NCBI GenBank assembly: GCA_030248195.1
Contig: JASAND010010818.1
Coordinates: forward strand, 55,362-119,361
Direction of reading: 5' to 3'
Source of the DNA: Trissonchulus latispiculum
Taxonomy: Eukaryota; Nematoda; Enoplea; Enoplida; Ironidae
DNA length: 64,000 nt
How positions within the stretch are numbered: position 1 is the stretch's first letter; each line of letters opens with the position of its first letter. Below are positions 16,401-53,428 of the stretch, in pieces. A program made the position numbers and the translations under genes. The notes under the pieces are model-generated. The model searched no databases and was not told the origin of the DNA. It saw only the letters and a program-made list of their open reading frames with translations.

Positions 16401-17088
16401 GAGTAGCGCTACCGCACTTTGTGTACAGTACTAGAGAAGTGGAGTACATTGTGAGATCTGAGCAGAGCACAGTATTTTCAAGACTTCTGATACTGATACA
16501 ATTCTGATACTAAACTCTACTATATGCTTTAACGACTGCAGTATTTGCCAGCGTGCTGCATCCAAAGACCAAAGCAATTAGGTCTAGTGAGAAGTCCAGT
16601 TAGCTATGGCTTGCAGTCATAGCTTGTCCACAATATACACAATTACAATTGTTGATAATATGTACATTTTTTAGTTGTAACCCCGACACCAGGGACCACA
16701 ACGACAGTTTTTAGTCCAAGTTCGTCAGTATCCACTACTACGACAACGCCAGGTAATATTCTAGAAAAGAGCAAAATTTAAACAATAAAAAATTGATTGA
16801 TATTATTTCACAAATATTAAGAATAATGACTTATTGCTGCATCTAGAATTGCAGAATAATTGTTTGTTCAACATTTTTATAACTTCAGAGAGCAAAACAA
16901 CATCCACAACAACTACAACAACCACAACGACAACACCAACAACCACAACGTCAACAACAACAAAAACAACAAGAACATCGTCTGCATCATCATCATCATC
17001 ATCATCATCATCATTATCATCATCATCATCATCATCCTCATCCTCATCATCCTCATCATCATCATCATCATCATCATCGTCATCATCG

Positions 17089-17121
<33 letters not shown>

Positions 17122-21720: not shown

Positions 21721-24700
21721 ATGTCTAGTTACAAAGTATTACTGATTGCGGCTATAGTTGCCTGTGCCCTATTAATTGTAATTCTGGGTCTGACCGCAGC
21801 TATCTTCGATAAACTCAAACATGGTAAGGTTTGCATCTTATGAAGTGTGCGCGATTTATTACAAATTACAAATTATAAATTATAAAGAGCTCCTTGCGTT
21901 CTGATTATTGTTCTTTGAATTGGATTTGGTTTTGAATTGCGGAGGACTTCTTATAAAACCCCAAACACACCTCGTCGTAGTACTTCCACAGCTACGCTCT
22001 CATTTAATTTAAAAGAAAGAATATTTGGAAATGAATTTTCTTTCTTTCTTTTAGAATGAAATTACTTTCCTTCTTCATGCAATAAGCTAAAGTTATGACA
22101 AAGGTCAAAAGTTTGAATGACAGGTGACACTCTAAGCATTGACATTGTGTGCAACAAACGCACACAGCTCTAGCTGGGAGGGATTAAATTACACTTGACC
22201 TTTACCTTAACTTTCTTTCCTCATTCTTTATTTTGAAAGATTTTTACTTGCCGTGCTTTATCCCGATGCCACGAACTAGCTTCTTACATTCCGACTCTAC
22301 ATCGTGCATCTCAGTAATTTGTATGCCCGCAGTAGCTTATTGACATCTTGCACTGTACGTATAAATGGAGTATATATTTGTAATGAACTGAGTTGGGTTG
22401 AAATAGAAAAACTTGACTAATTTGATTTGATTTCGAGAATGGGGTCGTTTAGGTTAGAAGTTCACTTACACGGAAGGTTAGCGCGTTTGCCTAAATAGAC
22501 AAACTTATGTACCAGATTCCCGAAAGGTGGTTTGCCAAAATCGGGGATCTCTGCAGCCAACCTATTAGGGGTCCTACTGTGAGTTCGTTAGATTAGGGGA
22601 GTCGGCTCTATCCAATCGCACCTGGAGTATGGATAGGAAGGTTCTGACGCAACAGGTCAAAACTAAGATCAGACTGTTAGTCTTTAACTCTGGGTTCAGA
22701 TCCAACTTAGATCTGAACAATTTACCTTTATTATTGGGAGGTTAACTGGGTTGTTTTTGAGCGGGGGATGGAGACTACGATTTAACACAACAAGATTAGT
22801 TTATAATCTAAAAAAAATTATATAATAAAATAAAAGGGAAACGGTTTCAAGACAAGTATTAACTACAATTAGAATTACAATATTCAAAAGGATACAGATT
22901 ACTCGATTTACCAGAGTTGCCAGCCCTTGGTTGGGGTGAGTATTTTGGAAAGGGACTAGAGATTACCTGATTATAGTTTAACTAAATTAAAGTTTGACCG
23001 GTTGATAATTACCTTGAGACTAATTATTAGTCCTCTTCTTCAGGTTCTGTGACTGGGCACGTTAAGTAGTGTTGCGTGTCGTGTGTTTAAACTCAAGTCT
23101 ACTCTCTATTAGTCTTTTACAGAAAACTACAACACAGGTTCAATATAACAGATAATTAACTAAAATTAACAGAGTGTCGGTTTTGCACAGTTCCGGTCTA
23201 GGAGTTTGGGTGATCCCGTCAAGCTACACCTGCAGTTTCACGAGTGGTTGCGGAAGTTTGGGATTACTAAACAATACAGGGGTCGGTCTAGGCGGGGTGG
23301 TACCGGGAGATGGCTACAAATGTTATTATTAAGTAAATTAAACAGTTAATTTAAAATGGTTTCACTATCTTTCTTCTCTGAGCAATCTCTTCTTCTAGTA
23401 TAGCTTGACAGTTGGCCTAAGCCAGAGACAACAAGAAGATGATAACTTCGGCAAAAGTGACAGACAAGCGGGCAAAAGACTGCATTTTCAGATATTTTTT
23501 GATAGTTCGCACAAATGATTCTCGAACAATTAATAACGTTAGGTTTTAAGGATTCCCAAATAGATTAGGTCGTGAACCAGACTGTCTCTGCCTTATACTG
23601 TTGTCAAGTGCTGATAACCGCCAATGTACCTTCAAAGACTGGATCAATAATAACCAATTCTGACTGCGTTCCAAATACTGACTGACGACTTCCGTCTGAC
23701 TGATACTAATACGCTACTGATAATGACTCCGGTTTGATGACCACAGACTAATCATAAACACCGATCCGAGACTCTTGGCAGGCAGCGGCTTCGTCTCTGA
23801 CCTGAATCAAATGGGTTAAAACCCATTAGTTCAGAATATAAGTGCGGGAATCAAACCCAGCAATTATTACTCACTTTTACAGCTTTCAGAGACGAAAATT
23901 AGAACTTTAGTTAATTCTGATTAAGATTTTGTTGAAAACCAGAATTAACACGCTTTGACCGCTTTTGCTGGATGAAATGTGACTAATTAGGCGTTATTGG
24001 CTTGATATAGGTAAAAGTTCGCCGAATATGAGTTTTTGGGCGATTTCCTGCATTGGAATGCCGGAAATCGCCGATTCAACATGTATTCTTCTACAGTTAT
24101 ATTCGGACTGCGCATAACTAGGTTTGAGGCCTAAGGCTTTTCTGCCAGTTAGGGCCTTTGCGACAGGAAAGCACCTGTTTATAGTATAAAGAGTTAGCAA
24201 GAGTAGAAACACTTATTTGCAAGATTATTCTTTTTAAATCTATTAGAAGATGGTTTTGTTGCGATTCTCAATTCCTACGTAATTACACAGTATTAACAAA
24301 TTACTAACTATTATTTATGTGGTTTTAGGTTATTTGATACTTACGTAACAATATTCACCGTGTATGCCATTAGATCCCATAGTTACTCGTTCATTTTGAC
24401 AAACAAATATGATTTGATGCTTATAGCCCAATTTGGCTAGTATTTTCGACGGAAAACGTTTACCCTTTGGAGCAACTGGTTGACATAAAAAGTCTAATTG
24501 TAGAGATAATGTACTTCGTAAAGATACATATTATAACCAAATTAGTTGCCCCGTTAGCGAGAACGAGTGAGGGCAAGAATAACAACTTTGACATAATTCT
24601 TGCAATTTGATTAAAACTAACTTTTGCCTTTTGTGCTAAAGGCTGACAACATGTATGAGTTATTTTGCAATGCACTGCAAGAATTACTAGCTCGAGGTGA

Positions 24701-30700: not shown

Positions 30701-33700
30701 GATATAAGCCAAGTCCTAATTAACGTCCTAAGTAAGGCTGAACCGATCCCTAACTAAATCCTAAGATCCTAGCAGAATGGACCACAGAACCTATGGATTT
30801 TAGGATTTAATTTACAACAGTTATGTGCAGACGAAAAGAGATTAAGAGTTACAGACCGTAGGTAATACACGTAAATAGGTACAGCTGAACAATTATTACT
30901 GACTGTGCAAAGCAACACAAATTACCGAGACAATTAGAATAAAGTGCAAAATACAGGCTAATACAAAAGCTGATGCAATCACTTAATCAAACCACAAACA
31001 CACAGTCACGGCACAGATAATTTTTAAGTCCTAAGGCTCGTACCTAGTTATTTGAACCTAACCTTTCAGGAATTAGACCTAGATAATGACGTAAACCTAA
31101 CCAGCAGTCTGATGCACGAATTAATCCCTGAATGAACTTTAACGTAAAAACTTTAACCTACTGCCTTCTAGCTAGAACCCGAAACCTATGAAAATTTCGA
31201 ATGAATTCATTATAGATAGCGAGTCTGGTACAGTTTCCAACAAGACGATCACTATATTCACTTTCCTAGCTAGAAGATATCGAGGGGGTCCGCCTATATG
31301 CTTGAAGTGTCCTATGTGCTTTTATTTTAAATGAAACAATCAATATTGCGCGGATTTCCACACTTTCTCGGGCACTAGATATTAGTCCTGACTACCCGCT
31401 CGGCAGATTACCAGGAGCTAATATCCTACTTCCTGCCTAAGGAAGCGGCCAGAGGTCAATTCGCATGTTTTTTTGGAAGTTTACAAGGATTCTGGATTTC
31501 CCCAAAAGTTTTACGTCAATTTTGACAAGATCTCACGCAAGACAAGCAAAAGCGAAAATAGAGACAAGAACTATAATAATGCATTTTATCAAAAATTCAA
31601 ACAGTTTTAGATCAATCTTCTTGACTAAGTTCCAGGGGTCCCCGACTCCAAACCACAACCGAAAGTTTGATAGCCGTAACGCAGGCTCTCAGGGCCGATA
31701 GGCGGCAGAAACCTTGCAACGGACAGTTGATGATCGTCACGTTGAGGGAGCAAGCCTCAACCAAGGATAGACAACCGTGCACGGCAAAGACAGATTCAGA
31801 AGAGCACAGGGTGTCGGACAAATCACCCTGTAGCAATGAGGATCAAGTAGTGCACGGTGCGCTGCCCAAGGCAGAATGTTTTCCCTATTAATCTACTGAG
31901 AGAGCTGGAGAGAGTCAGTCTCCGAAAATAAGCACCTTACAGTCCTGGTCCAACCGAGGAAGCTGCGCAGAGATCGATTCCGGGGGATCCGTGAAGGAAC
32001 TCACAACGCTGAGATAGAGAAATTCAAGGATCGGGGGAACTGGCAGGCAAGGTCCACAGGCAGAACAGCACCGACTGGCAGGTGGCAGGGGATCTGATCC
32101 AATGGCAGGCAGGCTAGACTTGATCCAAATCCAAGGCACCGGTAAAGGTTGATTCAGACCTGAATCAAATGGGTTAAAACCGTTAGGATCTTTCAGAGAA
32201 AGATCCTAACACGATATTTCCTGGGTCCAGGAATGATCCCCAAGAAGCTGAGACGGAAAGTTTGAAAAGTAATTGTAATTAAGTAACTAAGTAAAAGTAA
32301 CTAGTAATTAAGCGAAAACCACTGATATGGGCAAAACTTGAAAGTAGCATCGTAATCTCCATATGAAGTTTGAAAATGGCTTGCGAAATTAAAACGAACC
32401 ACAGAATATGATGTTTTTCTTTTATAAATCACATGAGCAGGTCTTGATCTATCCAGATATGACAAACTTTGATTGCATTTCGACGTACAGTGAGCGAACA
32501 CTGGCCTTTTTTCCTGAACATGTTGGGTTGTTCTTGCCATAATAGCAGAATCCCTTTAATTAACTTAAATTAATGAGTGAACCGTGCTCTGCACTAATCA
32601 TTGACAGTCGATCTACACCTGCCAATCCGCCTGGGGAGCGGCACCCAACGGGCCTCTACCTAGCTGTCCCGCAACAGCATAATTAGTAAAAGTTAACTGC
32701 CAGCTCGAAACATCCCAACTTAAACTTGAAACTTCATTCCGGTTAATTTTCCGAATTAACTCATGTCTTAACTATGGCAATAGTTAAAGACACAAATAAA
32801 ATGGCAACCAGACACATTCATTCCATAGATTCCATTCCGTTTTCCAGCAGAATCCAAGATCGAAACTCCATAAGAGACCAAAACTGTTCATCACATATTT
32901 AGCCTTTTTAGTTTATTTTGGAGCCGCTTATCATTGTTCAAAGACGTCGTTTTTGGTCATGTCGTGTCCTAAATTGCGTTCACTGGTTGGCACGCCGGCC
33001 GATTTGTATTGAAATACGAATATGATCTTTTATTGAACAAATCCACATGACAAAATATTCATTTTTATTACACATGCTTAGCATAGTTTCACATTCGCGC
33101 ACTCGTGCCCTGCAGTTTCACAAGTTTCACAAGTATCCGTGCCTTAAATTACTGAGTGCACGCTTGTCCGTGCTACAACCTATACAAGTTAAATATGAGC
33201 GTAGCTGTAGAAATTTTTGAATGATCTCGATGACAACACATATTTGCTACGTTGACTGAGCACTCTTATATAGTTATATTTATGTGGGGCTTGTTCAGTT
33301 GTAGATGCTTTTCAACGAAAAGAAGCCAGTTAGCGGAATTATCAGTAGCTGTAGTTAGCTGCAGAAGGGTTCGACTGGATTTGATCCAAATTATTTTCTA
33401 GTCATAAAAACTATTTTTTGGAAAAAACAGAATACTTTAGGACAGCACTCAGATTCAGGACTTTGGTTGACTGGAAATTGCTGTGTAAATAAATGACATC
33501 TTAGCTTATTTTGTATACGCAATTGTTTATTCTCATTAGCCTGCTATTTAAATATTTAGATAACTCAGACACTGATACCTCAACAATAAGGACTACGACA
33601 ACGACGACACCGGTATCAACTACCACCCCTGTTGGTAAGTATTTGAACTACTGTGCTTACTTTTCCACAACAGCCGTCGTATAACGTTACGATAATGTCC

Positions 33701-36700
33701 ACTAAAGTCTGACCAAAAATGTAGGGAGCGAAATTGTTTTGTTTATACTGAATTACCGGTACATTTTTGCTGCAGCAATGTATATATTTTCTGAACCGTC
33801 ATGGCATGAACTTTCTTTTGGTTGAAAAAATTTTTTTAAAAAATTAAAATTCATCAAAAGAAGCCGATTTTTTAAGTTTTGAAAGATCAGTAGCTGCCAG
33901 GAACTAGCCGTTCGGTGGAAAATTAGCCCTTGTCCCAGACATTTTGAATCCCGAATATTAGCTCATTTCGTCAAAAATTGCGATAGTTATTCAATTTTTT
34001 CGATTTTCAAAATCCTTTGATCTTTGCCGCTTTTCCAACTTTGACTGGCCATTACTCGCGACTCACTCAATGCAAAAATTTTTTAATCGGATTTTCAGGA
34101 CCGCTTACGTGTCAGCTTTCATTTGATATATGTGGTTTTTCAAAATTTGAAAATCAATTTTTTCGAAAAATACCACTTTTTGACCCAAAATTTCGACAAT
34201 GCGAATCCAGCAAAAGTGGGTAAAAATAACATTATCATAAGGTTCTGTTGATCATCATAATCATCTGAGTTGAATCCAACGATATAAAGTTTTCGTGGCT
34301 ACGGCTTAAATTGCCCCAGCAACGATTTTTTAAACAATATCCCTTTGCCAGCTGGTTTTTGGCTCCCTTTGATGTTGCCGCCTTGATTTGCCTGAACCAG
34401 TGTAAACTAGCGAAAACCAGCTGAAAAAGGTATATTGTTTAAAAATTCGTTGCTGGGGCAATTTAAGCCGTAGCCACGAAAACTTTATATCGTTGGATTC
34501 AGCTCAGATTAAACTTTATGATAACGTTATTTTTGCCCACTTTTGCTGGATTCGCATTGTCGAAATTTTGGGTCAAAAAGTGGTATTTTTCGAAAAAATC
34601 TATTTTCAAATTTTGAAAAACCACATAATATCACATGAAAGCTGACACGTAAGCAGTCCAGAAAATCCAATTAAAAAAATTTTTGCATTGAGTGAGTCGC
34701 GAGTAATGGCCAGTCAAAGTTGGAAAAGCGGCAAAGATCGAAGGATTTTGAAAATCGAAAAAATAGTAAATATCTCGCATTTTGTGAGGAAATGGGCTAA
34801 TATGGGGGTGGGAATGGCGGGGGCAAGGGGTAATTTTCCCCCGACGGGCTGGTTCCTGGCTTCTACTGGTTTTTTTAAAATTTAAAAATCGGCGCCTTTT
34901 GTTGAATATTATTATTAAAAAAAATTTTTTTTAACCAAAAAAAAGTACTGCCCCGAAGGTTAGAAAATAAATACGGTGGGGAGGCAAAAAGACCGGTAAT
35001 TCAGTATAAACAAAACAATTTCGCTCCCTACATTTTTTGGTCAGACTTTAGTATGTTTCATGTCTTCTACAGTTCAGATAGAATGTTTTAATGAAAATGC
35101 TTTTGAACTTGTAGTATATTAAGACAAGCTTTTGATTACAACGGTGGTAACTTATTTTAACATTCGAATTTCAGTGTCACACGTAGAAGGTTCGTTCAAT
35201 GACAATGGTACAGACTGGAATGATGACTTTAGAAACCACGACAGTGATGCTTATAAACATGCTAGCAGTGATTATGCAGTAGAGGTATTTAGCCAACCAT
35301 AGATATTCACAGTTGGCCGAGCGTTAGCTCGATCTAACCCGCCCAAACCTAGAAATTTTCTGGTCTTTTGCTAATGCGTCTAACCAACATAAGAGTATGA
35401 CAGTTGGCATGTATTATCAGCTTGACACATCCTCTGTACACTGATGATCCTCCCGCAAATTGGACCACAGGGACCCCCCGCAAATTGGTACACAGTCGGA
35501 ATCGCCTTACACTCACTCGCTGTATGCTTGTGTGCTAAAGCTCGAAAACACAAGCACTACGTGCGCGAGTTTTGTTTCTGATTCGAGCTTTAGACACCTG
35601 CATAGCCGTAGTGTTGTCTAGACTGTCTAGACTTGTCGCAGCGGCCGAGAACAGGTGACATGCCGGCCAGTCAAAATTCAGGCCGGCCGGTGACAGTTTC
35701 TGCGGCAGATGCCAGTCTAAACTTGCTACAGTCTGCGTTGAAACCTGTCAATATCATATTTTTACTTGTATTTTGGATAGCCGGTGAAAAGTGGCAGTGA
35801 AAAGAGAGCTGGCCCCAGGACGGCCGGCCGGCCCACGAAAAATTGCGCCGGTGAACAACACTACATAGCGGTGAAATTTTTTGGAGTGAAGGGTCCAATT
35901 TTCGGTGGGGGAGTCAGCCGTTAGCGTGCAGAGGATGTGTCAAGCTGACAATACATGGAGTATGCCTGCTGTCATACTCTTATGCATCTTACACTCTTGG
36001 TCTAACTTAGTTCTCTAAGATAGAGGATGTGCTATCATTGTGATTGTTTTGGCTAAAAAGTGGGCGTTATTATTTCTGCTTTTTAATCCGTTATTACTGA
36101 AATGCGTTTTATATATTCTATTTCAGATAACCACAGTTCTCCGTAAATCAAAGCTTCATGTAAAAGAGGTGGATATTGAAAATTTAGAGTAAGAGATATT
36201 TTGTAGGTTTCTAGTCTTATCCCCATGTTTTCAATATCTGTACCAGGATATCTTCTTTATAATCCTTCTTTATAATATCTTCTTTATAATACCTATGTAG
36301 ATAGTCCGTTTTATAAAAGTTTAACTTTTAGTCAAATCAAAGTTTTGTACAAAATGCCAACTAGTGACAATTTCAGTGCATCAAACACATATAAGCTAAT
36401 ACCTATTTTTGTTTGTATCTTTACGTGTTACATTATGGCACAGTCTAAAAAAATTTTGGGATGGAATGGCGGCCTGGGACCATACATGTGCTTGGGGGGT
36501 TTGGGGGGTTTCACCCAGAGGGGTCCCTCACCCCTCCCCAAGAATCCGGATTTATTTCGGTTTTTTGGGCAAAAAACAGAAAAATCCGGTTCGCCGGATC
36601 ACCCCTCCCCCCCCCGAATTTCCCCTCCTGCACATGCCTGCCTGGGACCTGGAACTAGGTTTAATAGTCTTTCTTCAAAGGAAAAATTTACAGCTGGCTT

Positions 36701-39700: not shown

Positions 39701-42700
39701 AAGTGGTCTATTTCTCGCATAAGTGGAGGGCATTAGGTTATAGAGTTACAAACGGCTCTAGCATATTTCTGTTTTTCCGAAAGGGAGTGGCTGCGTAAGG
39801 GTGGACGCGCTAATTGCTTTCATGACATAGACATAGCCGCCATGGATATTTCTCCGTCAGTATTAAACGCCTTCTTAATTGTGAAGATATACGAGTCAGG
39901 GTGTCTGTACCTCCACCCAGACAAAAGTAAATTCTCGGCATAGCAAACACCATTCCTAACTGATGTAGCACCAAGTGGAACGAGGCGTACCTAAAACTAG
40001 TCTTGTTCTACGCCACGAATGAAGTATCACCTCTAATCTCAGATTGAAAGATTGCAGCATATTTATCAATTCTAGCCACATCAGAAATCATTCAAAGAAA
40101 TCAACGTATTCAAAGAAGCAGGCTATATGCCACTAGGTATACTGCATGATCAATTTAGTCAGTGCAAAGTGCAAGTTGTAATAGTACTACACATAAAGGC
40201 GACTCGCTTGTAATCTTAACCAAATGAACACCTTATAAGAAGAACGTGTACCCAAAATGCAGCTAAAACATAATTATATAATGTGAGACCGAGAAAAACC
40301 AATGTCACGAGGAGCTTAGAGAATTTATGACTCGAGGAGTGCGATGACTTCTCTGGAACCGTTCAGAGATTGCAGTAGATAATTACTATTTTTAGAAATT
40401 TTCCACTTATTTTAGGTACAACCCCACCACCGGACCCTGGTTTTCTGGAAATCAGCAAGTATCTAAAATCTACTGTGGATATTAATGTAGATCCTTGTGA
40501 TGATTTTTACCAGTTTGCATGTGGACAATGGATTGGTAAAACGCCCGCTGAAAAGTCTTTGCCATACTTTGACGATGAAGTTCGTCACATCAGTAAGTAA
40601 ATTATCAATCAGAGCATTTCTGAAAATTCGGTTGCAATATATATGGTATATGGTTATAGCATGTTATAATTAGCTAGCACGTTAGCACCTCACGTTATAA
40701 CGCAGAATATATTCCATCAAATTTACGTTTTAAGCAACAATTTTTCTATTATTAGAAAGAATAAACGCTTCGAAGTTTGCCTTAACCTGATTAGAGCTAT
40801 AACAAAAATAACTAAAATGACGGTTATAAATAAATAAATAAGATAAATCATTTTACCATTTTAGTTGAAAATAACACAGAACAGTTTATTTATGCTCTAA
40901 GAAATCTCAGCATTGAGGATGTGGAGCTGCATGACTACAAATCGAAAGCCAAGTATCTTTTTGACCGTTGCATTGAAGCGGTATCGACTGCACAAAACAT
41001 AACTCAGATGTACATTGGTGCGTGGGAAGCTGTGCCTTTGTTGAAAAAACTACCGATATTTCAGAGTGTCCCAAAATCTTACACGAAGGAAGAGGTACCG
41101 CCAGATTTTTGTTGAATTTTTATTTTTGGTTACTCTGTTATTTATAATATCTCCAGCAACCGTAATTCTCAAGCTCTTCCAACACTAATATAAGCGGCTG
41201 GATTTGCTCTGGAACGAATTTTCCTATTCGCTCGATTCCTTGCATAAGACAATGCGGAGGGGATTTTTTCGTCTCAACCTTGACCATGTGTCAATCCTGA
41301 CCTTCACCTTTCAGGCCAAATGCATCAAAGAATGAAGTTTTAGAGCAATCTTTCTTTGCTATAGGCAGCAACATACATTGGTATGGGCCAGCAACAGCTT
41401 GGTATTGGAAATTCACCCTTTGTGCTTTATCCAACAGGGCGGTCTCTAGCTTTATTGGTAACTCATATTCAGTTCCCAACAAAAGAAGAAGCAATCATTA
41501 AACTTAAACGACTGGCTGAACTCGGTAAACAACTTTCAGTTTGTTGCCTATTTATTTGCCGCATAAAGTGTTATTCCGACATTTAGAGTTTTATTATAAG
41601 GAAAAGTGAGGCACATATTCGTAGTAGATAACGTTACCAGAAGCGAAAAATTGAAAAGCCAGAAATAGAAATCTCGGGAATGGTAACGCTTACCGTTGTT
41701 AACAATGCAGTTTTTGATTTGAACTAAACTGATTGGGCTTATTGGTCTGATGCCAAAATTACATGTATAAGCGTACCACTTTTCCATGATCACAGACGAT
41801 GGGCCTTTGGCGTCGTGCATTTCTATGCTAATTTAAAAAGGATTCGATTGATTACGTCTGCTGTAGTTTGACGTACGTATCTAGCGTTAGCACACCTACT
41901 ACTTGAGTCTGACCTAAAACTGTTGGATTCATGATCCTTAGGAAGAGTACTTCTTGATGCAATACTTATTTTTCTAGATCCGCTGTAGTTTATTTCCTTA
42001 CGGCCGATTGCACCAAATCGGACTAGCTATTCTGAGAATAAAATTATTCCAGAATAGCTATTCCTATTCTCATTTTATTCCGATATTCCGTTGCACCAAA
42101 CAAGAATAGGATTAGCTGAGCTAATACTATTTTACTCTCAGAATAAAATAAGAATAGGTATACCTATTCTTATTTTCGTTCAACCAATTAAACTGTACCT
42201 AACGTCATACTCATCCAATCAGATTGTAGTAGGTTTTGTCACGTTTTTCTGCATTTATTCCTATTCTTATTCTGATGTTGGCCATTTTCTGATTATGATT
42301 TTAAGTTGAGTAAGCAAGGAACTGAAATTTAAAAATGTACACAGTACTAAATAAGGCACTGGGTATGGGTTGCAGGTTTTATTTCGGCAAAAGCAAACTT
42401 TAGGTATGTACGTAAACACAAATAGTCAAGAATTTTACCAGTTCAACTTGATTGCGCTTAGGAAAGTATGGGCATTCGGCGAATTTGATTTGAATCAATA
42501 ATTAATGTTTTAAAATGCAAATATGAAAAATTTGCTTTGCCTAACATGAATAAGCAGACATGAATAAGTCATCTGCAAAGACAGCTCTTGATGTCGCAAA
42601 TTAAGAAAATATATAGATTAAAAGTTCAGGAAATCTTTTAAAATATGGGCTTAACCCTGCTCTTGAGGAAGAATAGGAATAAGAATAAATAAGGGACTTA

Positions 42701-44118: not shown

Positions 44119-44194
<76 letters not shown>

Positions 44195-45072
44195 CGTATA
44201 ATATATATTATTACCAAGAGTGCATAATTGCATTATAGAAGCATTATTAGAAGAAGAGTAAGCCACTAGAGGGCTCCTCTTCTTAGCATTGCATAACGGT
44301 GCTCCGACCACAATACGCGAATGTTCCCCCGTTTGGTGGGGGGTCGACAAGCATACCCCCTCCCCGTTTGGTGGGAGGGGGGGGGGGACGCAAAAACAGG
44401 TCACAGTTTGGTGGGGGGGGCAGGCTGAAGGGTCCCCGTTTGGTGGGGGGTCGCCAAGTCAGGCTAAGATTGGCTGAATCAAATTGGCTATTGACGACCA
44501 CCCCTCCAAACGGGGACCTATTTTGCCTTCCCCCCCCCCCCACCAAACGGGGATTTCTCTTTTCTACCCCCCCCCCCACCAAACGGGGACCTCTCTTTGC
44601 TACCCCCCCACCAAACGGGGACCAATTTCGAATAGAACAAAACTACCGTAATCCTTTGATCAACCCCCCACCAAATGGGGAGGGGGTCTCTGCAATCTGA
44701 TTGGCTGTTGGCTACCCCCCCCCCCCCACCAAACGGGCACCTTTTTTCTGCTACCCCCCCCATCAAACGGAAGGAGGGCTATGCTTTGTCGAAGTGAGCT
44801 ACCCCCCCCCCCCCCACCAAGCGGGGGAACATTCGCGTATTGTGGTCGGAGCACCGTTACGCAATGTCAAGACGAGGAGCCCTCTGGTGGCTTACTCTTC
44901 TTCTTATATATAGTGCAATTATGCACTCTTGTCATTACGTTATTTACTGCTCTGTGGGGACAAAATTCCGATATTTACTGCTCTTTGGGGACGCTGTGGG
45001 GAACTCTGTGGGACTATATGGGGGACGCTGGCACGTTGGAGACTCTGTGGGACTATATCTATATACAATATA

Positions 45073-45117
<45 letters not shown>

Positions 45118-48100
45118 TTATATATATATATATATATATTACTATTACTGTTAGATCGGAGCAGTACCTAGGAACAGCCAAAGATTTTGCAAGACAATGC
45201 TTAAAATCGGTTAATATTAATTATGCAACGTCTTTAAATATTAATGCCCGTTTCAGTGAACAAATCTTCTTTAAACATTAATAACTGTTTTAGGAGAAGT
45301 CACCTTACCATCGTCATTTGACACTGACTTAATCGATGTGTTTGACTTTTACTCAAATCTGAGTTTTCTGCTTCCTACTGAGTCTATCCCTCTTCATGTT
45401 GGAGCTTCAAATTCCATAACCGTGGAGGATTTATTCAAGCAATTTTCGGATTTTGACTTTGAATCATATTTCAAAGCTTATTATCCAGAAGATGTCTTCA
45501 AAGCTTTGCCTTCAACAATGCAGGTTTGTTTGCTTTACGGCCTTAGTCCACTGTGATCGTTTAATAAATACATCAGGCAGTTGAAATGAACAACGCTGTT
45601 TGGTGCCGTTAGTGTTTGTTTCATATACTTTCACTCAGTTAGCGAGTTTGTTCAGAAAACCTACTTCTTTAGCCGAGGACTAAGTATATACTGGCTTCCT
45701 ATTCAAAAATAGGGCTTAGCCCTCAGCACATCCGCAGTTAATCCTAATCTTATTTGGTGCAGCCCAGGGAAAGTCTTATTGATTCCCATTACAAATTTGT
45801 TCTGGTTTCAATTAAGCTTTATTTTTCAGTTTCATATTCTTGCAACTATTTAGCATATAGCATGATATAGTATCTAAAGTCACCAGAAATGGAGGCGCTT
45901 TGGCAAGCCGGTTATAAATATGGGTCTCTTGCGCAATTCGCCCCCCCCCCCACCAGCCATAACTTAAAGCTTATATAAAGCCATAAAGCCATAAAAACGG
46001 ATTTCGGATTCGTGCTCAGCGCCTCTGAAAACCCCTGTATGCACGTTTTCAGCAAAATTTTTTAAAAAAAATTTCGGTTCCCCTTGGTCCCCCCTTACCA
46101 AAATAAAATTTAAAATTTTTTAAAATTTTAAAATTTTTAAATTTTTGAATTCATCAGCCTCTAGTATGCACCCATACAAAATTTCAAAGTTATTCGTCAA
46201 AAAAATCAAAAGTTAGGGCTGGGAGGGAATTGCGCAAGAGACCCATAAATATTTCTTCAGCAACATTCATATGAAGATTTTCATTTCAAAGCGCATCAAT
46301 ATGTGCCTCCAGGTCCAGGAACATTAGCCGTTTTGCAAACGATGTGCATTGCGTATTTTTTGTTATTATTTTAGGTAGACTTATATGATCACGGAAAGCT
46401 GCCTAACATAACACACATTATGGGGGAAACCGATCCCAAGATTGTAATAAATGCCTTTTTGCTTAACTCTCTCTTCGCCCTGCTACCTTTGCCTGAATCA
46501 AATGCAAACCTCCAACTTACAACATCTGGCAAGCCGACAGATCGGGAGATACAGTGTGCAGGAATGTCCAGTAAACTCTACTTTATTGCAGGTAACACAA
46601 AAACTGTATCCTTATGCAAGTTTAGATTACACCTCGAGTGCACAGAATCGAATCATGGTTTGCTGGGGTCCGGAAACCGTCAAGTTTTCTTAGATTTCTT
46701 TGTCTCGACAACCATGTCTCCACTCTTCATGAGTTTTTGCTACAAAGAAAGCTGATACAGTATATTGATATTTTCTGTTTATGTATACATTTGCTAGGGC
46801 GAATATTTGTGGACAGTCTGGTGGAACAGGGTTCAGAAGCAACCCTGAGAACAATGTTAGCCAACTTACTGAACAGCTATCGGGATCACTTCTCAGGCAT
46901 TACTTGGTTAGATGATGAATCACTGGAAAAAATTCTCGCAAAAGTAGACTCAATTGTGGTGAACCTCCTATTACCGCAGTGGACCAAAACGGACACCGCA
47001 CTTAACGCTTACTATGCAGATCTAGTATTGAATGATCTAGAGGATTTCTTCAGTATCAGTCTCAGAGTTCAACAGTTTATGCAGAAGGATATGCAAGGTA
47101 AACAGTGGATATTAGTCATTAGCAGAAGAATGAGCATATGGTGCGCTCCCTTTGATAAGCGTAGTTCTCTGCCATCCGACACATTGATAACTTGTTTTCG
47201 TATTTTGTAATCGAAGTTGACGTTCTCTATAGTGTCAGAATTTAAGAGGTGAATGGGGATCGCTCAATACACTATTAAACTTCGTGGCACAAGTGAGAAT
47301 ACACACATAAGTAGATCGTAAGTAGTTCTACTTGATCGAAGGATGACTTGGCCGTGAACATGAAAGCTAAAATGAGAGGCGGTAGAACTGATAAAATGCT
47401 GTCTGCTTGCGCTTATTTACTAAAACTGTGGAACGTAGGTTTGTTTGAATAGAGTGCGGATTATTCGTACTGGTGTGACTTTTTCAGAAACGATACTGAA
47501 GCCACAATCACGAAATCAGTGGCCTGCAATCCTTGGAATAGATGTTGTTAATGCCTTCTATGTGCCTTCACTCAACTCATTTACAGTTCTTGGTGGAATT
47601 GTGCGTCCTCCCCTAATGAAAAATGAGTATCCCTGGTTCTGGAAATTTGCCACGTTGGGCACTATTATGGGTCATGAAATAGGGCATGGGTAAGGATGTG
47701 TGTGCTATGCATATAATACAATTGTAGCAAATTTTTTCTTGCGAAACAGCTTAAATTAAAATAAATAAAATGATAAATAAATGAATAAAAATAAATAAAA
47801 ACAAGTAAATAAATGTACACTCACAAATGTTAGATACTGAAGTGGCTCAGAATTATTAATGTTTTAAAAAATTAGTAGGTGCCAACGCACGATTTCAATC
47901 ACACAGAATTCACATAAGCCAACACATAAAACAATTGAAAAGCTACCTTTAATCACTTCTATTGGCAAAAATATTAACAAAGTATTTAAATAAAACAAAG
48001 AAAATAACCACCATTATTATCTGTTGTGTCTTTGTCCAAGAACAAAAGACCACCAGGAATTCCAGAATACATCAAGAAAATCTCTATGATTATTTCTCTA

Positions 48101-51100
48101 GGAATTCCAGAATAGTTATAATAAATTCAATGAATACACAGGCAATACTGTAAGTAATAAATGTAAGCAAAATCAGTAATAATGATAAAGTAAATGACCG
48201 TAATAATATGATACAGGGTAATGAAATAATAACACGCTGAGTCACTGCAATAAAAGCTTCTAGAAAGTTCCTCTTACTAGTAGTTTCTGGAATCTTGTAC
48301 TAACAAACAGTTTCTCTGATTATGGTGTAGTAGATTTAGAGTTTGACAGAAGTGTTTGAAAGACTGCTGGTTGGAAGGTCGATCTTTACGCAGTCACAGG
48401 GTTACTTGGGCTCACCATATGCTTTAGTGATGTGGATCGGATCGGCGGATCGGATCGGATCGACCGATCCGGGGTCGGATCGGATCGGATCGGATCGACA
48501 AATTTTCGGATCGGATCGGCCGGATCGGATCGGCTTGATTTTTCCGGATCGCCGATCCGACAAATGATGCAAATTTTTAAAATTTGTACCAATCTTTTAC
48601 AAAATTGCAAAATTTTTTTCGAAGAAATTTTCAAAATCTTTCCGGAATTTTGTTCAAATGTTGAATTTTCTGTAGTTAAAGTCTTATTTTATGTTCTCTC
48701 TCTGGATGTATACATTTTTATATGTATACAAAAAGGAGTCAAATGGAATTGCTCTCTAATATATATTTCCAGCTAATTAATTTTTGGACCGTCTGTTTCG
48801 CTTTTTAAATTCAGTTCCACTGACTGCTGACAGTGACTTTTTTGGTATGATGAAAAGAAAAGTTCTCAACTAATAGGAACGCTGTCTGAAATTGGAAGGA
48901 AAATTTTTCGTCCAAGCGCGTTTGCTCAGAAGGGGGAAGTGTGCAAAATCCACCGGACGCACTTTTGTATATGCTACCCTATTGTACGACCAAAAATGTG
49001 TGTGCAAACTTATTCCTTCAGAGCAAACCCCCAACAATATATATTTTTCTAGATTCGTCCTGAGCTGGAGATTTCGAAGAACCTGCATATCGGGATTGAC
49101 TCACGGAAAATATTATTTAATATTAATTATTTAATTTATTAAAAGCATTTTATTTCTCCAAAATTTTAACAATATTCAAAATTTTGTATCCATGGAGCTA
49201 TTTCAGGTGCATATTTGTGCACTTAAATTTGAATGATACAATTATTTAAGAGCCAATTATGAGCTGGAACCAATACTGAAAATGTACCAATTTCTCGAGT
49301 TCACTATTCATTGATGGAAGATTTTGTGAATTTCGGAAACAGGGCGCATTTCTGGGACCTATTTGTGTTACAAAGGTTGTTCAGCTCGTCAAGACCTTTC
49401 GAGTCAAGACCCATAGCTCCATAACTGTTGGTGATGGAAAACATTTAAATCCGGAAAAAATCTCGTTTTCGTGAATTTGAGAAACGAGTGCATTTTAGGA
49501 AATGATTGTATTATTAAACGTGTTCAGATTGTCAAGGGCTTTTAAGTGATAACCACATCGTGAGCATTAAAATATTTAAATTCCGGAAAATTTGAAAAAC
49601 CGAAAATTCCGAAAATTGGGTGCACTTCGGTTGAAAAGGTTGTAAGTGCAATAATATGAAGCGGAACCAGATCTATTTGATTACGAAAACTAAATATTCA
49701 ATGTACATAAATTTTAGCAAACCTCAGAATGTTTTAGATTTTCTATCCTAAATGAAACCCGGGATTACGGATTTTCCCCGAGTTTCCATGTCGTCTCCAT
49801 TTCCGAGCGATGTTAAAACATATGTATATTGCTTGTTTATAAATACGACCAAAACTTGTACGCACATGTTTTGGTCTTACACCCTAGTTCTTCAATTTTA
49901 TCTTACTTTTGTATAGTTCTCAATTCCTACAGTCTTTTGTGTAGTTCTTTAGATCTCAAACTCCCAAAACAGAACAAATCGTTATTTTCCAAAGGTGACT
50001 ACACATCATTCTGCAGCTGCAGTTTCTGATACAGACTTTCAGAATTATTCAATAAAATTCAGATGCGAAGTTTGATGAAGAGTTTTACAAAATAAGGGGA
50101 AATCGGAAAATATAGCTATTTAAGTGTCTACAATTGAAAATTAAAATTATGGTCGGATCGGATCGGATCGGTCCGATCCGGGGCTGGATCGGATCGGATC
50201 GGATCGGATCGGATCGCCGGCCGTTTGCCGGATCGGATCGGTAGGTGATTTCGGCTGCCGATCCGATCCGATCCACATCACTAATATGCTTGGGCGGGGT
50301 TGCGGCTGCAGCTAGTAGGCTAGCCAGAGTGATTGCATACCTTTGAGCAGAGTATGGTTGCATTGGTAATTTGAATTATCAGGTTGATGAAGCTTACTGG
50401 AATACTTTATCGAGATGACCAGTTTTGTTAAGCACTCACAGAGACCATGTTTTGTTATGTGCTCATAGGGCTATACTTGTACATTTAAAATGGTGGACAA
50501 AATGCGCAAAGATGAAGGTCAATTCCCTGGAACGCAGCGACAAAAGTAGTATCGAGATCACCGGAGTAACAGTGTCGACACAACGTCATGTCATTTTCCG
50601 AGTTGAATAAACATCGAGTTAGGGAGATAGTCGAAGTATCGCGAGATCATTCTTTGAGATATTTAATTAATTAATTAATTATAAGTATTAAAATCTATAT
50701 CAACGATTTCAGGTCATTCCGGAAACGTGAGATTATTCTTCTGTAATCAGCAAATGACAGTAAAATGCTGCGTGCTGGTTTCAAACATATTTAATTAGTG
50801 CCACATACTCTTTGCATAATGTTGGAATCGATTCGCTAATAACTCGTTTCCAATAATTCGGTTAAAATTTAATGTGTGTAGTAACAAACTTTTGTTTGTA
50901 CTTATCTGAGTACGTTTCAATTATGTTAATATAATTTCCATGTGGTTTTGTTCTGATCTTCTCTGAATGAAGTACTTACTCGTTTAGGTTTGATGCGAAC
51001 GGTGTTAATTATCGATGGGATGGACAGTTCGACCCCATTATGACAGCGAAAAGCAAGAGAATTCTTAATTCTCAATTTGACTGTCTGGTGTCTCAGTAAG

Positions 51101-53428
51101 TAATATCAACTTTGATGTATCATTTGTTCGTTAAGGGGGGTCACTGGCCAGAAATCGATCGTCATGGATTTCGCTCATTTTCACACATAATATGCCCCAT
51201 ATGTTCTTTAAAAGAAGACAAAATATTAGTGTTTGAAATCAAACTGTGATAATGTTCAGTTTCAAAGCTGGAAAACTTGAAAATTTCGGTGATGAGCCCT
51301 GCAAGGTCAGCCGGAGACCGAACGCGATCGAGAACAAGGTTGACCGATACACAAAATTCAAGGCTTTACTAAGGTAATAGTTTAGTGCTGAAGCGGCTCA
51401 AGTCTAGCTATCCAGGCGTTCACAATGCATACTTGAGTGATACACTGATCTAACTTTGGAGGACTGCCCTGGATAACTTAACTAATTTTAACTTGCACAC
51501 TGCATTTTAGACCCCTAGTTCTATGAGAAAAAATTGCTCCTCTTTCCATTTTTGGCTACTTTTGGAAAAATATAAAAATTGGCATTTTTCACCTATAAAG
51601 ATCAAGAGTCCCGCCACAGCAGCCATGTGCAATATTGGCGCATTTCTTATGCGGCAGACATGGATATATTAGTCTGCCAAGTTTGGTGGCTTTTTTCCAC
51701 ATTATGCATGAGAAATTAACAAAAGTTTGAAAAACGGTTATTTTTAGCAAATTTTTCTGTTTTTGTGGCGCATTTTTTGAACTTAGGAAAAACAGATGGT
51801 AAAAAATTGGGACTGCTTTCACATGATGTCTTTTTATGCGCAGAGTGCTGTCTATGTATCTATTTGCCATTTCCGTAGCTTTTGTCAATCTTTCAGGAGA
51901 AGTGAAAGCGTACGATAGGTACTGTTTTTGGTCCAAATGGTCCAAAAACGCCTGATTTTCCAAACTTCTGACTATGAAATTTCGCCAAAAATCTATCACA
52001 AGAGTCCATGATTTTCTTCTATACAGTAGAGGGCTCCTCTTCTTGGCATTACGTAACGGTGCTCCGACAATAATAGGCGAATGTTCCCCCGTTCGGGGGG
52101 TCGACCAAATCGACATAGCCTACCCCTCCTCTCCGTTTGGTGGGGGGGATACCCAAACAGAGGTCCCCGTTTGGTGGGGGAATAGCCAACAGATAATCAG
52201 ATTGCAGAAACCGCCTCCGTCTGGGGGTATCTTGCAATGGATTGCGGTTAAAAGAGTCCCCGTTTGGTGGGGAGGGTCGAGAACAGCCAATCAGATTCAG
52301 CCAATCTTAGCCTGACTTGGCAGCCAATCCCAAACGGGGACCCTTTTTGGAAATGAGCTGTAAGTACCGTAATCATTTGCTAGACCCCCCCAAACTGAAG
52401 GGTTGGTTCTGCAAACTGATCGGCTGTGGGCTACCCCCCCCCCCCAAAGGGGGAGCGGGATGTTGTGGTCAGAGCACCGTTACGCAATGCCAAAAAGAGA
52501 AGACTGCACGATAATAGTCAAGAAAGAAGGATGTCATTGCAGCACCTCCGACCCGAAAAATTCGGGCCTGAGGTGGGGATCGAACCCACAATCTTTGGCT
52601 AACTAGGCCTCTAGTGGCCTACTCTTCTTTTTCATAATGGTGCAATTATGCACTCATGCCGTCACTCAACAGAATTGCAACAAAGTAGATAGCTGCACTC
52701 TACTATATGTTTGTAACATGTGTGCAAACCTGTAGCGCTGTATCTTGTTTTAAAATTTTTCTGCCACAAGCTTATTAACCTTACCCTTTCATTTTTCTAT
52801 ATTTAACACATGTCAGGGTCACATTTGAAGGGCTCTGCAGAACTATAGAAGCAATATTACGCAAAACGATCTTGTCTTGTTTGGAGGACCCATGGGGACT
52901 GCAAAATATGAGGAAAATCGGAGATGGTCAAAAATCGGCGGAAAAGTGACCCCTTAATTGCTTCAACTTTACTTATGCTTTTAAATTGTGTTATTTGCAT
53001 GTCTTCGATGACATTGTGTTTTCAGATTTGATCAATACTGCTACGACTACGGAAACGAAACAGGCAAAAGAGAATACTGTATAGACGGATCTCACACAAT
53101 AACAGAAAATGGTGCTGACAATCTAGGAATTCACATTGCCTACGAAGCCTACAGAGCCTTTGTAAAACTTCATGGACCAGAATCCAAATTGCCGGGATGG
53201 GAGAAGTTCACGAATGACCAACTATTTTTCATGAGCTCCGCACAGCCCTATTGCTCTGCATACAACGAAGAAGGCATCCAGATACAATTAATGGACACTC
53301 ACTCGCCCGACAACTACAGGGTTATTGGAATGATGAGAAATCTGCCAGCTTTTGGTGAAGCCTTCAGCTGTAAACTAGGACAATACATGTATCCACTGGC
53401 GAATGAGACATGTACTGTTTGGGCATAA
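21721..53428 (+). CDS. Gene 2: SEA-domain M13 zinc metallopeptidase (neprilysin family)
   Basis: Fifteen in-frame GT-AG exons: 21721-21823, 33560-33634, 35175-35284, 36127-36188, 36726-36889, 39481-39591, 40416-40592, 40865-41094, 41365-41524, 45294-45523, 46375-46591, 46798-47097, 47488-47689, 50988-51095 and 53026-53428 (2652 nt, 883 aa). A type II anchor (about 5-28) and Thr-rich linker precede a SEA-like domain (60-171) and a Ser/Thr linker (172-216). The full M13 domain (217-883) opens with DPCDDFYQFACGQW (234-247). Catalytic residues: substrate-binding NAFY (668-671), HEIGH (709-713: zinc His709 and His713, base Glu710), ENGAD (zinc Glu777, Asp781), DTHSP (His842) and Arg848. It ends CTVW-A. 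Spacings match human neprilysin (N542 to H583, E646 to H711 to R717). It should be an ectoenzyme cleaving extracellular peptides. The SEA/mucin stalk on an M13 enzyme is unusual. Confidence 0.88.
23801..23832. repeat. Shared hairpin motif, copy A
   Basis: GACCTGAATCAAATGGGTTA occurs here and at 32158-32177. Here it forms an 18-nt hairpin (AATGGGTT-AA-AACCCATT). The repeat suggests two parts of one element or element family about 8.3 kb apart. Confidence 0.55.
25618..25689. repeat. 24-bp tandem repeat, three units
   Basis: Three units of consensus (A/G)CAAAACATTCACACTTCAG plus five variable bases. Scattered single ACATTCACA motifs lie upstream to about 25020. Confidence 0.75.
25912..25938. 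repeat. Hairpin, 12-bp perfect arms
   Basis: AGTAATAATTGC, loop TAA, then the complement. The same GCAATTATTACTCAC string occurs in direct form at about 23870. Confidence 0.7.
26020..27026. mobile_element. TTAA-flanked inverted-repeat element, GGTGCTGGTA ends
   Basis: The ends GGTGCTGGTA and TACCAGCACC (outer 10 bp perfect, about 16/20 over 20) are flanked by TTAA at 26016-26019 and 27027-27030. TTAA is the piggyBac target. The 1007-bp interior has no transposase, so it would be a non-autonomous (MITE-type) copy. Confidence 0.7.
27380..27800. repeat. Array of GGCC-AAA-GGCC mini-hairpins
   Basis: At least ten variants of GGCC(C)AAAGGCC or GGCCNTAAAGGCC occur in 420 bp, often spaced by AAAAATNGCATAAAA-type filler. 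It looks like a degenerate tandem repeat of about 30-45 bp. Confidence 0.55.
27901..28007. repeat. Two adjacent strong hairpins
   Basis: Arms 27901-27911 and 27918-27928 (CTTTTCTGGCC, 6-nt loop), then arms 27952-27964 and 27995-28007 (AGTGCGTATTACT, 30-nt loop that itself holds CCACA-CC-TGTGG). All arms are perfect. Confidence 0.8.
28162..28197. promoter_or_regulatory. Perfect 36-bp palindrome forming a six-unit heat-shock element
   Basis: The sequence equals its own reverse complement. From 28166 to 28193 it reads TTC-TA-GAA-AG-TTC-TA-GAA-CT-TTC-TA-GAA: six alternating 5-bp units, the ideal binding array for trimeric heat-shock factor. It lies in gene 2 intron 1 within hairpin-rich repeat DNA, so it may be carried by a transposon. 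Activity is inferred from the motif. Confidence 0.65.
28588..28727. repeat. Further strong hairpins of the same region
   Basis: Arms 28588-28599 and 28623-28634 (GAACTTTTGTTG), and arms 28701-28711 and 28717-28727 (GTCTGGGAGGT, 5-nt loop). All are perfect. Confidence 0.75.
29411..29440. repeat. (ATT)n microsatellite
   Basis: Eight or nine consecutive ATT units. Confidence 0.85.
29800..29870 (-). mobile_element. tRNA-derived SINE fragment, copy 1
   Basis: On the minus strand a T-arm-like hairpin with a good B box (GGGGGTTCGAACCCC) is followed by GGCCCAAATTTTTCGGGA. The same arrangement occurs at 52535-52600. A B box plus a conserved non-tRNA tail in two places indicates a SINE rather than a tRNA gene. 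No convincing A box or cloverleaf was found. Confidence 0.5.
32158..32210. repeat. Shared hairpin motif, copy B, with second hairpin
   Basis: It repeats GACCTGAATCAAATGGGTTA of 23801. A perfect hairpin follows directly, with 13-bp arms at 32182-32194 and 32198-32210 (GTTAGGATCTTTC) and loop AGA. Confidence 0.65.
33701..35052. mobile_element. Long foldback element with about 600-bp arms, TA-flanked
   Basis: Almost the whole 1.35 kb is one inverted repeat around a centre near 34390. The ends read TA-AAGTCTGACCAAAAA and TTTTTTGGTCAGACTT-TA. Inner matches include AGGGAGCGAAATTGTTTTG, CAATGCGAATCCAGCAAAAG and AACTTTATATCGTTGGATTC. The TA duplication suggests Tc1/mariner-type mobilisation. No protein. 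It lies in gene 2 intron 2. Confidence 0.75.
35391..35981. mobile_element. Inverted-repeat element with about 50-bp ends
   Basis: The left end AAGAGTATGACAG with inner CAGCTTGACACATCCTCTG is matched in reverse complement at 35925-35981, with a small insertion in one arm. The interior (591 bp in all) is non-coding. It lies in gene 2 intron 3. Confidence 0.7.
36440..36660. other. GC-rich repeat-like patch in gene 2 intron 4
   Basis: G-run and C-run rich (TTGGGGGGTTTGGGGGGTTT, then CCCCTCCCCCCCCC) with inverted ATCCGG motifs. It is open in several frames only because it lacks AT. Probably a transposon relic. Confidence 0.4.
37286..37877. mobile_element. Inverted-repeat element, AAAACTGAGGAGCG ends
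   Basis: AAAACTGAGGAGCGACTAAA at 37286 is matched by its complement ending at 37877 (one mismatch near position 15). It is 592 bp, non-coding, in gene 2 intron 5, directly beside the next element. Confidence 0.65.
37889..39284. mobile_element. TTAA-flanked inverted-repeat element with G-run ends
   Basis: TTAA at 37885-37888 is followed by nine G and CTACGAA. The mirror image TTCGTAG, a run of 11-12 C and TTAA (39285-39288) closes it. The flanks are themselves inverted copies (CAGTTTTGC and GCAAAACTG), so the insertion may lie in the centre of an older palindrome. 1396 bp, no transposase. Confidence 0.65.
41669..41785. repeat. Diverged fragment of the 18.6-kb foldback family
   Basis: Shares GAAATCTCGG, TTTGAACTAAA, CTGATTGG, CAAAATTA and TGTATAAG in the same order as 18660-18780. 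In gene 2 intron 9. Confidence 0.55.
42003..42886. mobile_element. Foldback element FB2 (GCCGATTGCACCAAAT ends)
   Basis: Perfect 16-bp terminal inverted repeats lie at 42003-42018 and 42871-42886. A second inward motif sits about 80 bp inside each end (CCGTTGCACCAAAC, TTTGGTGCAATGG). The arms are filled with AATAGGAATAAGAATA-type repeats where FB1 has GTTAAC repeats. The unique middle (about 42310-42650) is non-coding. FB1 and FB2 also share CCAATCA-centred blocks at the same relative place. Confidence 0.75.
43465..43707. mobile_element. FB3, partial copy of FB2
   Basis: About 240 bp nearly identical to the right end of FB2 (42655-42886), from CCTGCTCTTG to TTTGGTGCCATCGGC. It carries an expanded TCTTAT run. 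Only 600 bp separate it from FB2, so it may be a local duplication. Confidence 0.75.
44110..44210. repeat. (TA)n microsatellite
   Basis: About 80 bp of nearly pure alternating AT, directly left of the next foldback element. Confidence 0.9.
44216..44930. mobile_element. Foldback element with CCCCGTTTGGTGGGG arrays, copy 1
   Basis: The perfect 17-bp ends AAGAGTGCATAATTGCA and complement (44216-44232, 44914-44930) enclose long inverted arms (for example GCTCCGACCACAATACGCGA near 44300 and its complement near 44840). Inside, about four units of CCCCGTTTGGTGGGG in the left half face about eight reverse-complement units in the right half. No transposase. It lies in gene 2 intron 9. Confidence 0.75.
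45058..45141. repeat. (TA)n microsatellite
   Basis: Alternating AT with one GTGTT interruption. Confidence 0.9.
45922..46244. mobile_element. hAT-like element, GGGTCTCTTGCGC family, copy 2
   Basis: Same ends as copy 1 (19614-20199) with a perfect 8-bp duplication ATAAATAT at 45914-45921 and 46245-46252. It is 323 bp and keeps the right half of copy 1 with most of the left arm lost. In gene 2 intron 10. Confidence 0.85.
48258..48299. promoter_or_regulatory. Partial heat-shock-element-like cluster
   Basis: TTC-TA-GAA-AG-TTC (three units, 48258-48270) is followed after about 16 bp by TTC-TG-GAA. In gene 2 intron 13. Weaker than the array at 28162. Confidence 0.35.
48425..50283. mobile_element. 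Non-autonomous hAT element with GGATC arrays
   Basis: The ends TAGTGATGTGGATCGGATCGG (left) and its complement (right) are flanked by a perfect 8-bp duplication ATATGCTT at 48417-48424 and 50284-50291. Within 120 bp of each end are arrays of the pentamer GGATC in opposite orientation (48436-48560, 50155-50275). The 1859-bp interior codes for nothing recognisable. It lies in gene 2 intron 13, between the HEIGH exon and the next. Confidence 0.85.
52000..52657. mobile_element. Foldback element with CCCCGTTTGGTGGGG arrays, copy 2
   Basis: Matches copy 1 (44216-44930) at both ends (AGAGGGCTCCTCTTCTTGGCA left; GAGCACCGTTACGCAATGC and TGCAATTATGCACT right) and in its array units. The right arm is broken by a SINE fragment (52535-52600). 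Confidence 0.75.
52535..52600 (-). mobile_element. tRNA-derived SINE fragment, copy 2
   Basis: Minus-strand T-arm-like GTGGGTTCGATCCCCAC plus tail GGCCCGAATTTTTCGGGT, matching copy 1 at 29800-29870. Confidence 0.5.

What the first reader, a model, noticed from the sequence alone, without database searches (positions are those of the whole stretch)
21721..53428. An M13 peptidase carried on a SEA-domain and mucin stalk
Neprilysin-family enzymes normally join the membrane anchor to the catalytic domain by a short stalk. Here 15 phase-compatible exons give anchor, Thr-rich linker, SEA-like domain (60-171), Ser/Thr linker and a complete M13 domain. I know of no standard M13 enzyme with this layout. 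The stalk would lift the enzyme above the glycocalyx.
Basis: partly seen in the sequence, partly recalled or inferred. Interest (0 to 1): 0.75.

Follow-up and report, generated by a model that had tools for sequence, protein, structure and literature searches.

The report
Neprilysin-type peptidase on a SEA-like stalk
An apparently animal gene seems to encode a neprilysin-family peptide-cutting enzyme set on a stalk with a SEA-like module and probably sugar-coated linkers, and a duplicate next door has the same stalk without the enzyme, which hints that a membrane mucin and an enzyme were mixed and matched in evolution.

Summary
The gene is there, at the stated ends (21721-53428, +). Excised, the module scores 18.6 bits (E 0.0022) against a cut-off of 26.4; within the full protein E is 0.11; only the profile's first half matches. 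The best support lies outside the stated span: a tandem paralogue at 13441-17760 has the same exon order and phases, its own sub-threshold SEA match (E 0.00023) and strong third-position bias, but ends in a mucin exon with no peptidase found. All stalk units are symmetric phase 1-1 cassettes, fitting exon shuffling. None of 64 M13 database rows carried SEA, and three paper searches for the combination found none. I call it a new variant of a known kind: an M13 ectopeptidase whose plan resembles SEA-bearing type II serine proteases. There is no transcript evidence.

The parts
21721..21823 (+). Gene B exon 1: 4-residue tail plus hydrophobic anchor, ends in phase 1
   Evidence: best 19-residue Kyte-Doolittle mean 3.3; found by the first-exon scan
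33560..33634 (+). Gene B exon 2: Thr-rich linker, symmetric phase 1-1, 60% S+T
35175..35284 (+). Gene B exon 3: N-terminal part of the SEA-like module
   Evidence: 59% identical to 14851-14967 in the self comparison
36127..36188 (+). Gene B exon 4: middle of the SEA-like module (phases 0 to 2)
   Evidence: same length (62 nt) and phases in the paralogue
36726..36889 (+). Gene B exon 5: C-terminal part of the SEA-like module; no GSxxV motif seen
   Evidence: motif from passages
39481..39591 (+). Gene B exon 6: Ser/Thr-rich linker, symmetric phase 1-1
40416..40592 (+). Gene B exon 7: start of M13 (DPCDDFYQFACGQW)
40865..41094 (+). Gene B exon 8: M13 N-lobe
41195..41287 (+). Gene B exon 9: M13 N-lobe, probable; weak splice sites, the frame is open without it
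41365..41524 (+). Gene B exon 10: M13 N-lobe
45294..45523 (+). Gene B exon 11: M13 N-lobe
46375..46591 (+). Gene B exon 12: M13
46798..47097 (+). Gene B exon 13: M13
47488..47689 (+). Gene B exon 14: VNAFY and HEIGH active-site motifs
50988..51095 (+). Gene B exon 15: M13
53026..53428 (+). Gene B exon 16: ENGAD zinc ligand, C-terminal H/R and CTVW end, stop codon
13441..13567 (+). Paralogous gene A exon 1: hydrophobic anchor, phase 1
14604..14666 (+). Gene A exon 2: Thr-rich linker
14852..14961 (+). Gene A exon 3: SEA-like module, N part
15508..15569 (+). Gene A exon 4: SEA-like module, middle
16001..16167 (+). Gene A exon 5: SEA-like module, C part
16675..16752 (+). Gene A exon 6: Ser/Thr linker
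16889..17760 (+). Gene A exon 7: mucin-type S/T-rich terminal exon with stop; AATAAA at 17902

Best explanation
Gene B encodes a single-pass (type II) cell-surface M13 zinc ectopeptidase whose catalytic domain is carried on a shuffled stalk: a Thr-rich linker, a probably non-cleaving SEA-like module and a Ser/Thr linker that is probably O-glycosylated. Shown here by sequence: the phase-consistent exon chain, the intact catalytic motifs, the three symmetric 1-1 stalk units, and a tandem paralogue with the same anchor and SEA-like exons that ends in a mucin exon instead of a peptidase. Inferred: that stalk and peptidase are in one mature transcript, that the enzyme is active on extracellular peptides, and that the glycosylated stalk holds the active site out in the glycocalyx. 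Also inferred: that the architecture arose by exon shuffling between a type II SEA mucin and an M13 gene in a tandem array, or by loss of the peptidase from the mucin copy.
For: The 16-exon model is open from ATG to stop with AG/GT borders. M13_N and M13 Pfam matches are essentially full length, E 1.9e-25 and 2.5e-52; solved neprilysin is the closest structure by sequence, E 2.7e-51, mainly over residues 556-913. N699, A700, H740, E741, H744, E808, D812, H873, R879 and eight cysteines are invariant in a 4-row alignment; six of those cysteines are invariant in the 8-row one. The paralogue has the same exon order and phases and its SEA-like part is 52% identical. Differences at first, second and third codon positions are 31, 23 and 72 of 112, pS 0.785 (saturated), pN 0.264: purifying selection on protein. 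In the DNA comparison of the two regions 7 of 8 rows fall on stalk exons or their borders and the eighth has E 0.99. SEA is the top Pfam family for the excised module of both copies. No hydrophobic phase-1 ATG first exon was found between 36890 and 40416, and exon 7 has no in-frame ATG before its conserved motif.
Against: No RNA evidence. SEA is below Pfam's cut-off in both copies, E 0.11 in the context of the full-length B protein, and its second half does not match. With its anchor and linker included, the top Pfam row for A is another low-scoring family, New_glue (E 3.4e-05, below its cut-off), ahead of SEA (E 0.00039). Sequence searches of solved structures find no SEA domain. Every stalk unit is a symmetric cassette that could be skipped in frame, so the stalk could be optional. 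Just past the exon 6 donor an in-frame stop and an AATAAA (39595) would allow the stalk to end there. Intron 1 spans 11.7 kb, so joining of exon 1 rests on phase and on the paralogue. Weaker or low-complexity first-exon candidates exist at 29330 and 35660.
Confidence: 0.7

Rival explanations
1. Two genes: a short SEA-like stalk protein ending near 39600 and an independent M13 gene starting downstream of it or from another first exon.
For: Paralogue A is such a peptidase-free SEA-mucin. Reading through the exon 6 donor meets a stop within 9 bases and an AATAAA at 39595. The first-exon scan looked only for hydrophobic exons with five donor types, and it lists weak candidates upstream at 29330 and 35660.
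Against: No candidate between 36890 and 40416 in that scan, and the exon 7 frame has no in-frame ATG before DPCDDFYQF. The exon 6 to exon 7 junction is phase-matched with AG/GT sites. AATAAA occurs about 1.3 times per kb on this strand, so one near a stop means little.
Confidence: 0.14
2. The stalk is a skippable cassette: exon 1 also splices directly to exon 7, giving an ordinary short-stalk M13, and the SEA form is a minor isoform.
For: The junctions of exon 1, the T-rich exon, the SEA trio, the S/T exon and exon 7 are all phase 1, so any subset of these units leaves the frame intact.
Against: No transcript data either way. Purifying selection on the SEA-like part between the two copies argues that it is used, at least in one of them.
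Confidence: 0.25
3. The N-terminus is a cleaved signal peptide, so the product is a secreted SEA-mucin-M13 enzyme rather than a membrane protein.
For: The n-region of B is short, and small residues (TAA in B, ALAA in A) lie towards the end of the hydrophobic run. Soluble M13 enzymes exist (PMC2259306, passage seen).
Against: About 24 uncharged residues with a best 19-residue Kyte-Doolittle mean of 3.30 in B and 3.36 in A, more like an anchor; no dedicated predictor was available.
Confidence: 0.2
4. The 60-171 module is not a SEA domain but another small, lineage-specific fold.
For: Sub-threshold score, only the N-terminal half matched, E 0.11 in full-length context; no SEA structure found by sequence; no relative at E 10 or better among 41 candidates.
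Against: SEA is the top Pfam family for the excised module of both copies, E 0.0022 and 0.00023 at library level. A position between S/T linkers near a membrane anchor is typical of SEA modules (recalled).
Confidence: 0.24

Closest known systems
Neprilysin / endothelin-converting enzyme family (M13)
   Same: Complete N-lobe and catalytic lobe, HExxH, ExxxD, VNAFY, eight shared cysteines; probable type II topology.
   Different: A SEA-like module and two S/T-rich linkers between anchor and enzyme; the cysteine pair at the start of the ectodomain, present in 4 of 7 aligned homologues, is absent; a 4-residue tail; the WW about 15 residues after HEITHGFD, present in 5 of 7, is replaced.
HAT/DESC type II transmembrane serine proteases
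   Same: Anchor, one SEA domain, then protease, in a gene cluster (PMC3154331, passages seen).
   Different: S1 serine protease instead of an M13 metallopeptidase. This is what the gene works like in plan, not what it belongs to.
Transmembrane SEA mucins such as MUC1 and MUC16 (recalled)
   Same: S/T-rich stretches next to a SEA-like module, clearest in paralogue A.
   Different: Opposite topology expected here (N-terminus inside, mucin at the C-terminal end); no GSxxV self-cleavage motif seen.

Membership tests
M13 peptidase | Pfam Peptidase_M13_N and Peptidase_M13 above curated cut-offs, near full length | tested here: met
   90.5 bits (cut-off 32) and 177.9 bits (cut-off 24.5), profiles covered 1-378/381 and 1-202/205
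M13 peptidase | Zinc site HExxH plus ExxxD, and substrate-binding VNAFY | tested here: met
   HEIGH at 740, ENGAD at 808, VNAFY at 698; roles from PMC2259306 section 10, read
M13 peptidase | Structural cysteines | tested here: met
   C236, 244, 303, 566, 777, 857, 896, 910 invariant in the 4-row alignment; the 233-241 pair is said to occur only in mammalian neprilysins; the N-terminal pair is absent
M13 peptidase | Catalytic activity | not testable with these tools
   needs expressed protein
M13 peptidase | Type II membrane anchor (typical, not universal) | tested here: inconclusive
   one strong hydrophobic N-terminal segment, 19-residue mean 3.3; signal peptide not excluded
SEA domain | Pfam SEA above the curated cut-off of 26.4 bits | tested here: not met
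   B: 18.6 bits excised, 13.0 in full length; A: 21.7 bits excised, 21.0-21.4 in longer pieces
SEA domain | Match over the whole family profile | tested here: not met
   only profile positions 4-55 (B) and 2-47 (A) of 106, though with E 0.0022 and 0.00023
SEA domain | GSxxV self-cleavage motif (only in cleaving members) | tested here: not met
   DRPKIIV and EEQPKIVV at the corresponding strand, by eye; motif and the existence of non-cleaving SEA domains from PMC9478142, passages seen
SEA domain | SEA fold | not tested
   the folding tool admits only contiguous translations, and the module is split over three exons
Type II transmembrane serine protease | S1 protease domain | tested here: not met
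   no trypsin family among the 8 Pfam rows of the full protein

The most novel reading that the evidence does not exclude
The window holds a tandem cluster in which one stalk cassette (anchor, linker, SEA-like module, mucin linker) serves both a barrier mucin and an ectopeptidase. Because the junctions of these units are all phase 1, the peptidase could also be spliced onto the neighbouring gene's anchor and S/T linker, so that one locus would build enzyme-bearing and enzyme-free glycocalyx proteins of different heights.
Probability: 0.15. Interest if true: 0.75.

Novelty: new variant of a known kind. Interest (0 to 1): 0.5.

Why it matters
M13 enzymes process signalling peptides outside cells and are usually described as an anchor plus a catalytic domain. 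A SEA-like and mucin-like stalk would make reach into the glycocalyx a variable, evolvable property of a peptidase, and would show that the anchor-SEA-protease plan known from serine proteases arose again with an unrelated protease. The peptidase-free twin in the same stretch gives a natural pair for testing how the fusion arose.

Tried and rejected
Searching the whole genome for further copies: the genome search gave no answer in nine identical tries, so the stretch beyond the window and the organism remain unknown.

Relatives of the SEA-like part: 41 candidates shared words, none at E 10 or better. A second M13 search, with a profile, gave 13 rows, none with SEA. Of the 64 rows together, 63 carry both M13 families and 1 only the N-terminal one. 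These searches score only proteins that share exact words and fall in a length range (7049 and 7990 candidates), so they do not prove absence.

A model joining exon 3 directly to exon 5 fails in frame; the 62-nt exon 36127-36188 solves it and recurs in the paralogue. A first script with a wrong guess for this exon stopped with an error. RhoGDI rows for the SEA-like module (E 0.26 to 0.9) and four weaker rows (E 1.2 to 2.2) were judged chance. A hydrophobic ATG exon at 59015-59135 resembles exon 1 in type, but its match to gene A's anchor exon is not significant (E 0.76).

The first-exon scan gave 17 rows on the + strand. I set aside those at 29330, 45018 and 45112 (low complexity), 35660 (weak, 2.05) and 46420 (inside an M13 exon); the rest lie at 13441/13474, 21721 and 58949/59015.

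Other paper searches gave nothing on the combination in what was listed: 0 papers, 3 papers, 8 listed of 81, seen as listings only. No tRNA and no Rfam match in the window.

Full report
Observation. I re-derived the gene from the raw window. Open frames with AG/GT borders and matching phases give 16 exons from ATG 21721 to a stop ending at 53428, a protein of 914 residues. Its splice sites are weak and the frame is open without it, but by eye it fits a conserved stretch of the M13 N-lobe, and with it the M13_N score rises from 88.8 to 90.5 bits. I regard it as likely, not certain.

Peptidase. Pfam finds Peptidase_M13_N (E 1.9e-25) and Peptidase_M13 (E 2.5e-52), both nearly full length. Neprilysin structures are the closest by sequence, E 2.7e-51, with the best stretch over residues 556-913. 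HEIGH, ENGAD and VNAFY are present. The zinc ligands, the general base, the C-terminal His and Arg and eight cysteines are invariant in an alignment with three other M13 proteins. Roles of the zinc-site and VNAFY residues are from PMC2259306, section 10, read; the role of the C-terminal His and Arg is recalled. The protein is a divergent M13: 22-24% identity to seven aligned homologues, and it lacks the WW seen in 5 of the 7 after the zinc site.

Stalk. Residues 35-59 and 173-217 are 60% and 58% Ser+Thr. Residues 60-171 match Pfam SEA at 18.6 bits, E 0.0022, when excised, and at 13.0 bits, E 0.11, in the full-length protein; the cut-off is 26.4, and only the first half of the profile aligns. 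Two sequence searches of solved structures give no SEA domain. On gene B alone I would call the module only possibly SEA.

Paralogue. Comparing the protein with the whole window revealed a second series upstream: anchor 13441-13567, Thr-rich 14604-14666, SEA-like 14852-14961, 15508-15569 and 16001-16167, S/T 16675-16752, and an 872-nt S/T-rich exon ending in a stop at 17760, with AATAAA at 17902. Exon order and phases agree with gene B, and the exon lengths inside the module are 110, 62 and 167 nt against 110, 62 and 164. The SEA-like parts are 52% identical. They differ at 31, 23 and 72 of 112 first, second and third codon positions, with pS 0.785 (saturated) and pN 0.264, so they are constrained as protein. 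The excised A module matches Pfam SEA at 21.7 bits, E 0.00023, again below the cut-off and only over the first half; with anchor and linker added, a different sub-threshold family ranks first. Two tblastn runs show no M13 row between 17760 and 21720. Gene A thus looks like a peptidase-free membrane mucin with the same stalk.

One gene or two. Exon 7, the first M13 exon, has no ATG in its open frame before the conserved DPCDDFY motif. A scan for hydrophobic ATG exons ending in phase 1 with common donors found none between 36890 and 40416. Over the + strand it gave 17 rows; after setting aside low-complexity, weak and within-M13 rows (29330, 35660, 45018, 45112, 46420) those at 13441, 21721 and 59015 remain. 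The simplest reading is that the M13 exons use the anchor at 21721. Against this, the exon 6 donor is followed by an in-frame stop and an AATAAA (39595), so an early-ending form is conceivable, and the scan did not cover non-hydrophobic first exons.

Mechanism. Most likely this is a type II surface ectopeptidase on a glycosylated stalk. The strongly hydrophobic N-terminus (best 19-residue Kyte-Doolittle mean 3.30 in B, 3.36 in A) and positive residues on its N-terminal side favour an anchor, but a signal peptide cannot be excluded. The GSxxV motif of self-cleaving SEA domains (PMC9478142, passages seen) is absent in both copies by eye, so I expect no self-cleavage. Lifting the enzyme through the glycocalyx is inference.

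Origin. The T-rich exon, the SEA trio, the S/T exon and exon 7 all begin in phase 1, the usual signature of shuffled modules (recalled). Either a type II SEA-mucin duplicated beside an M13 gene and fused with it, or the mucin copy lost its peptidase; these data do not decide.

Comparison. M13 enzymes are typically type II membrane proteins, with some soluble members (PMC2259306, passages seen). HAT/DESC serine proteases have an anchor, a single SEA domain and a protease, and lie in a gene cluster (PMC3154331, passages seen). The present gene resembles those in plan but belongs to M13.

Novelty. None of 64 database rows for M13 relatives carries SEA (51, 13); these are word-sharing, length-limited samples. 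Paper searches for 'SEA domain' together with 'Peptidase_M13', 'neprilysin' or 'endothelin-converting enzyme' gave 0 papers each, in an open-licence library only. The architecture is unreported as far as these searches go.

Limits. 

Noticed in passing
13441-17760 (+): Tandem paralogue with the same anchor and SEA-like exons that ends in a Ser/Thr-rich mucin exon of about 290 residues; no peptidase found.
   Followed up: yes
59015-59135 (+): Possible first exon of a third gene: short tail, hydrophobic segment beginning KVLL, phase-1 donor. Similarity to gene A's anchor is not significant (E 0.76), and the scans showed no S/T-rich linker or SEA-like exon after it within the window.
   Followed up: partly
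2364-3783 (+) and 9216-10328 (+): Retrotransposon-like open frames (RNase H-like and reverse-transcriptase-like by eye), not searched.
   Followed up: no
44283-44700 and 51956-52500: GC-rich repeats of the type CCCCACCAAACGGGGACC in two introns of gene B, related by eye; also GGATC-type tandem repeats at 48434-48533 and 50153-50216.
   Followed up: no
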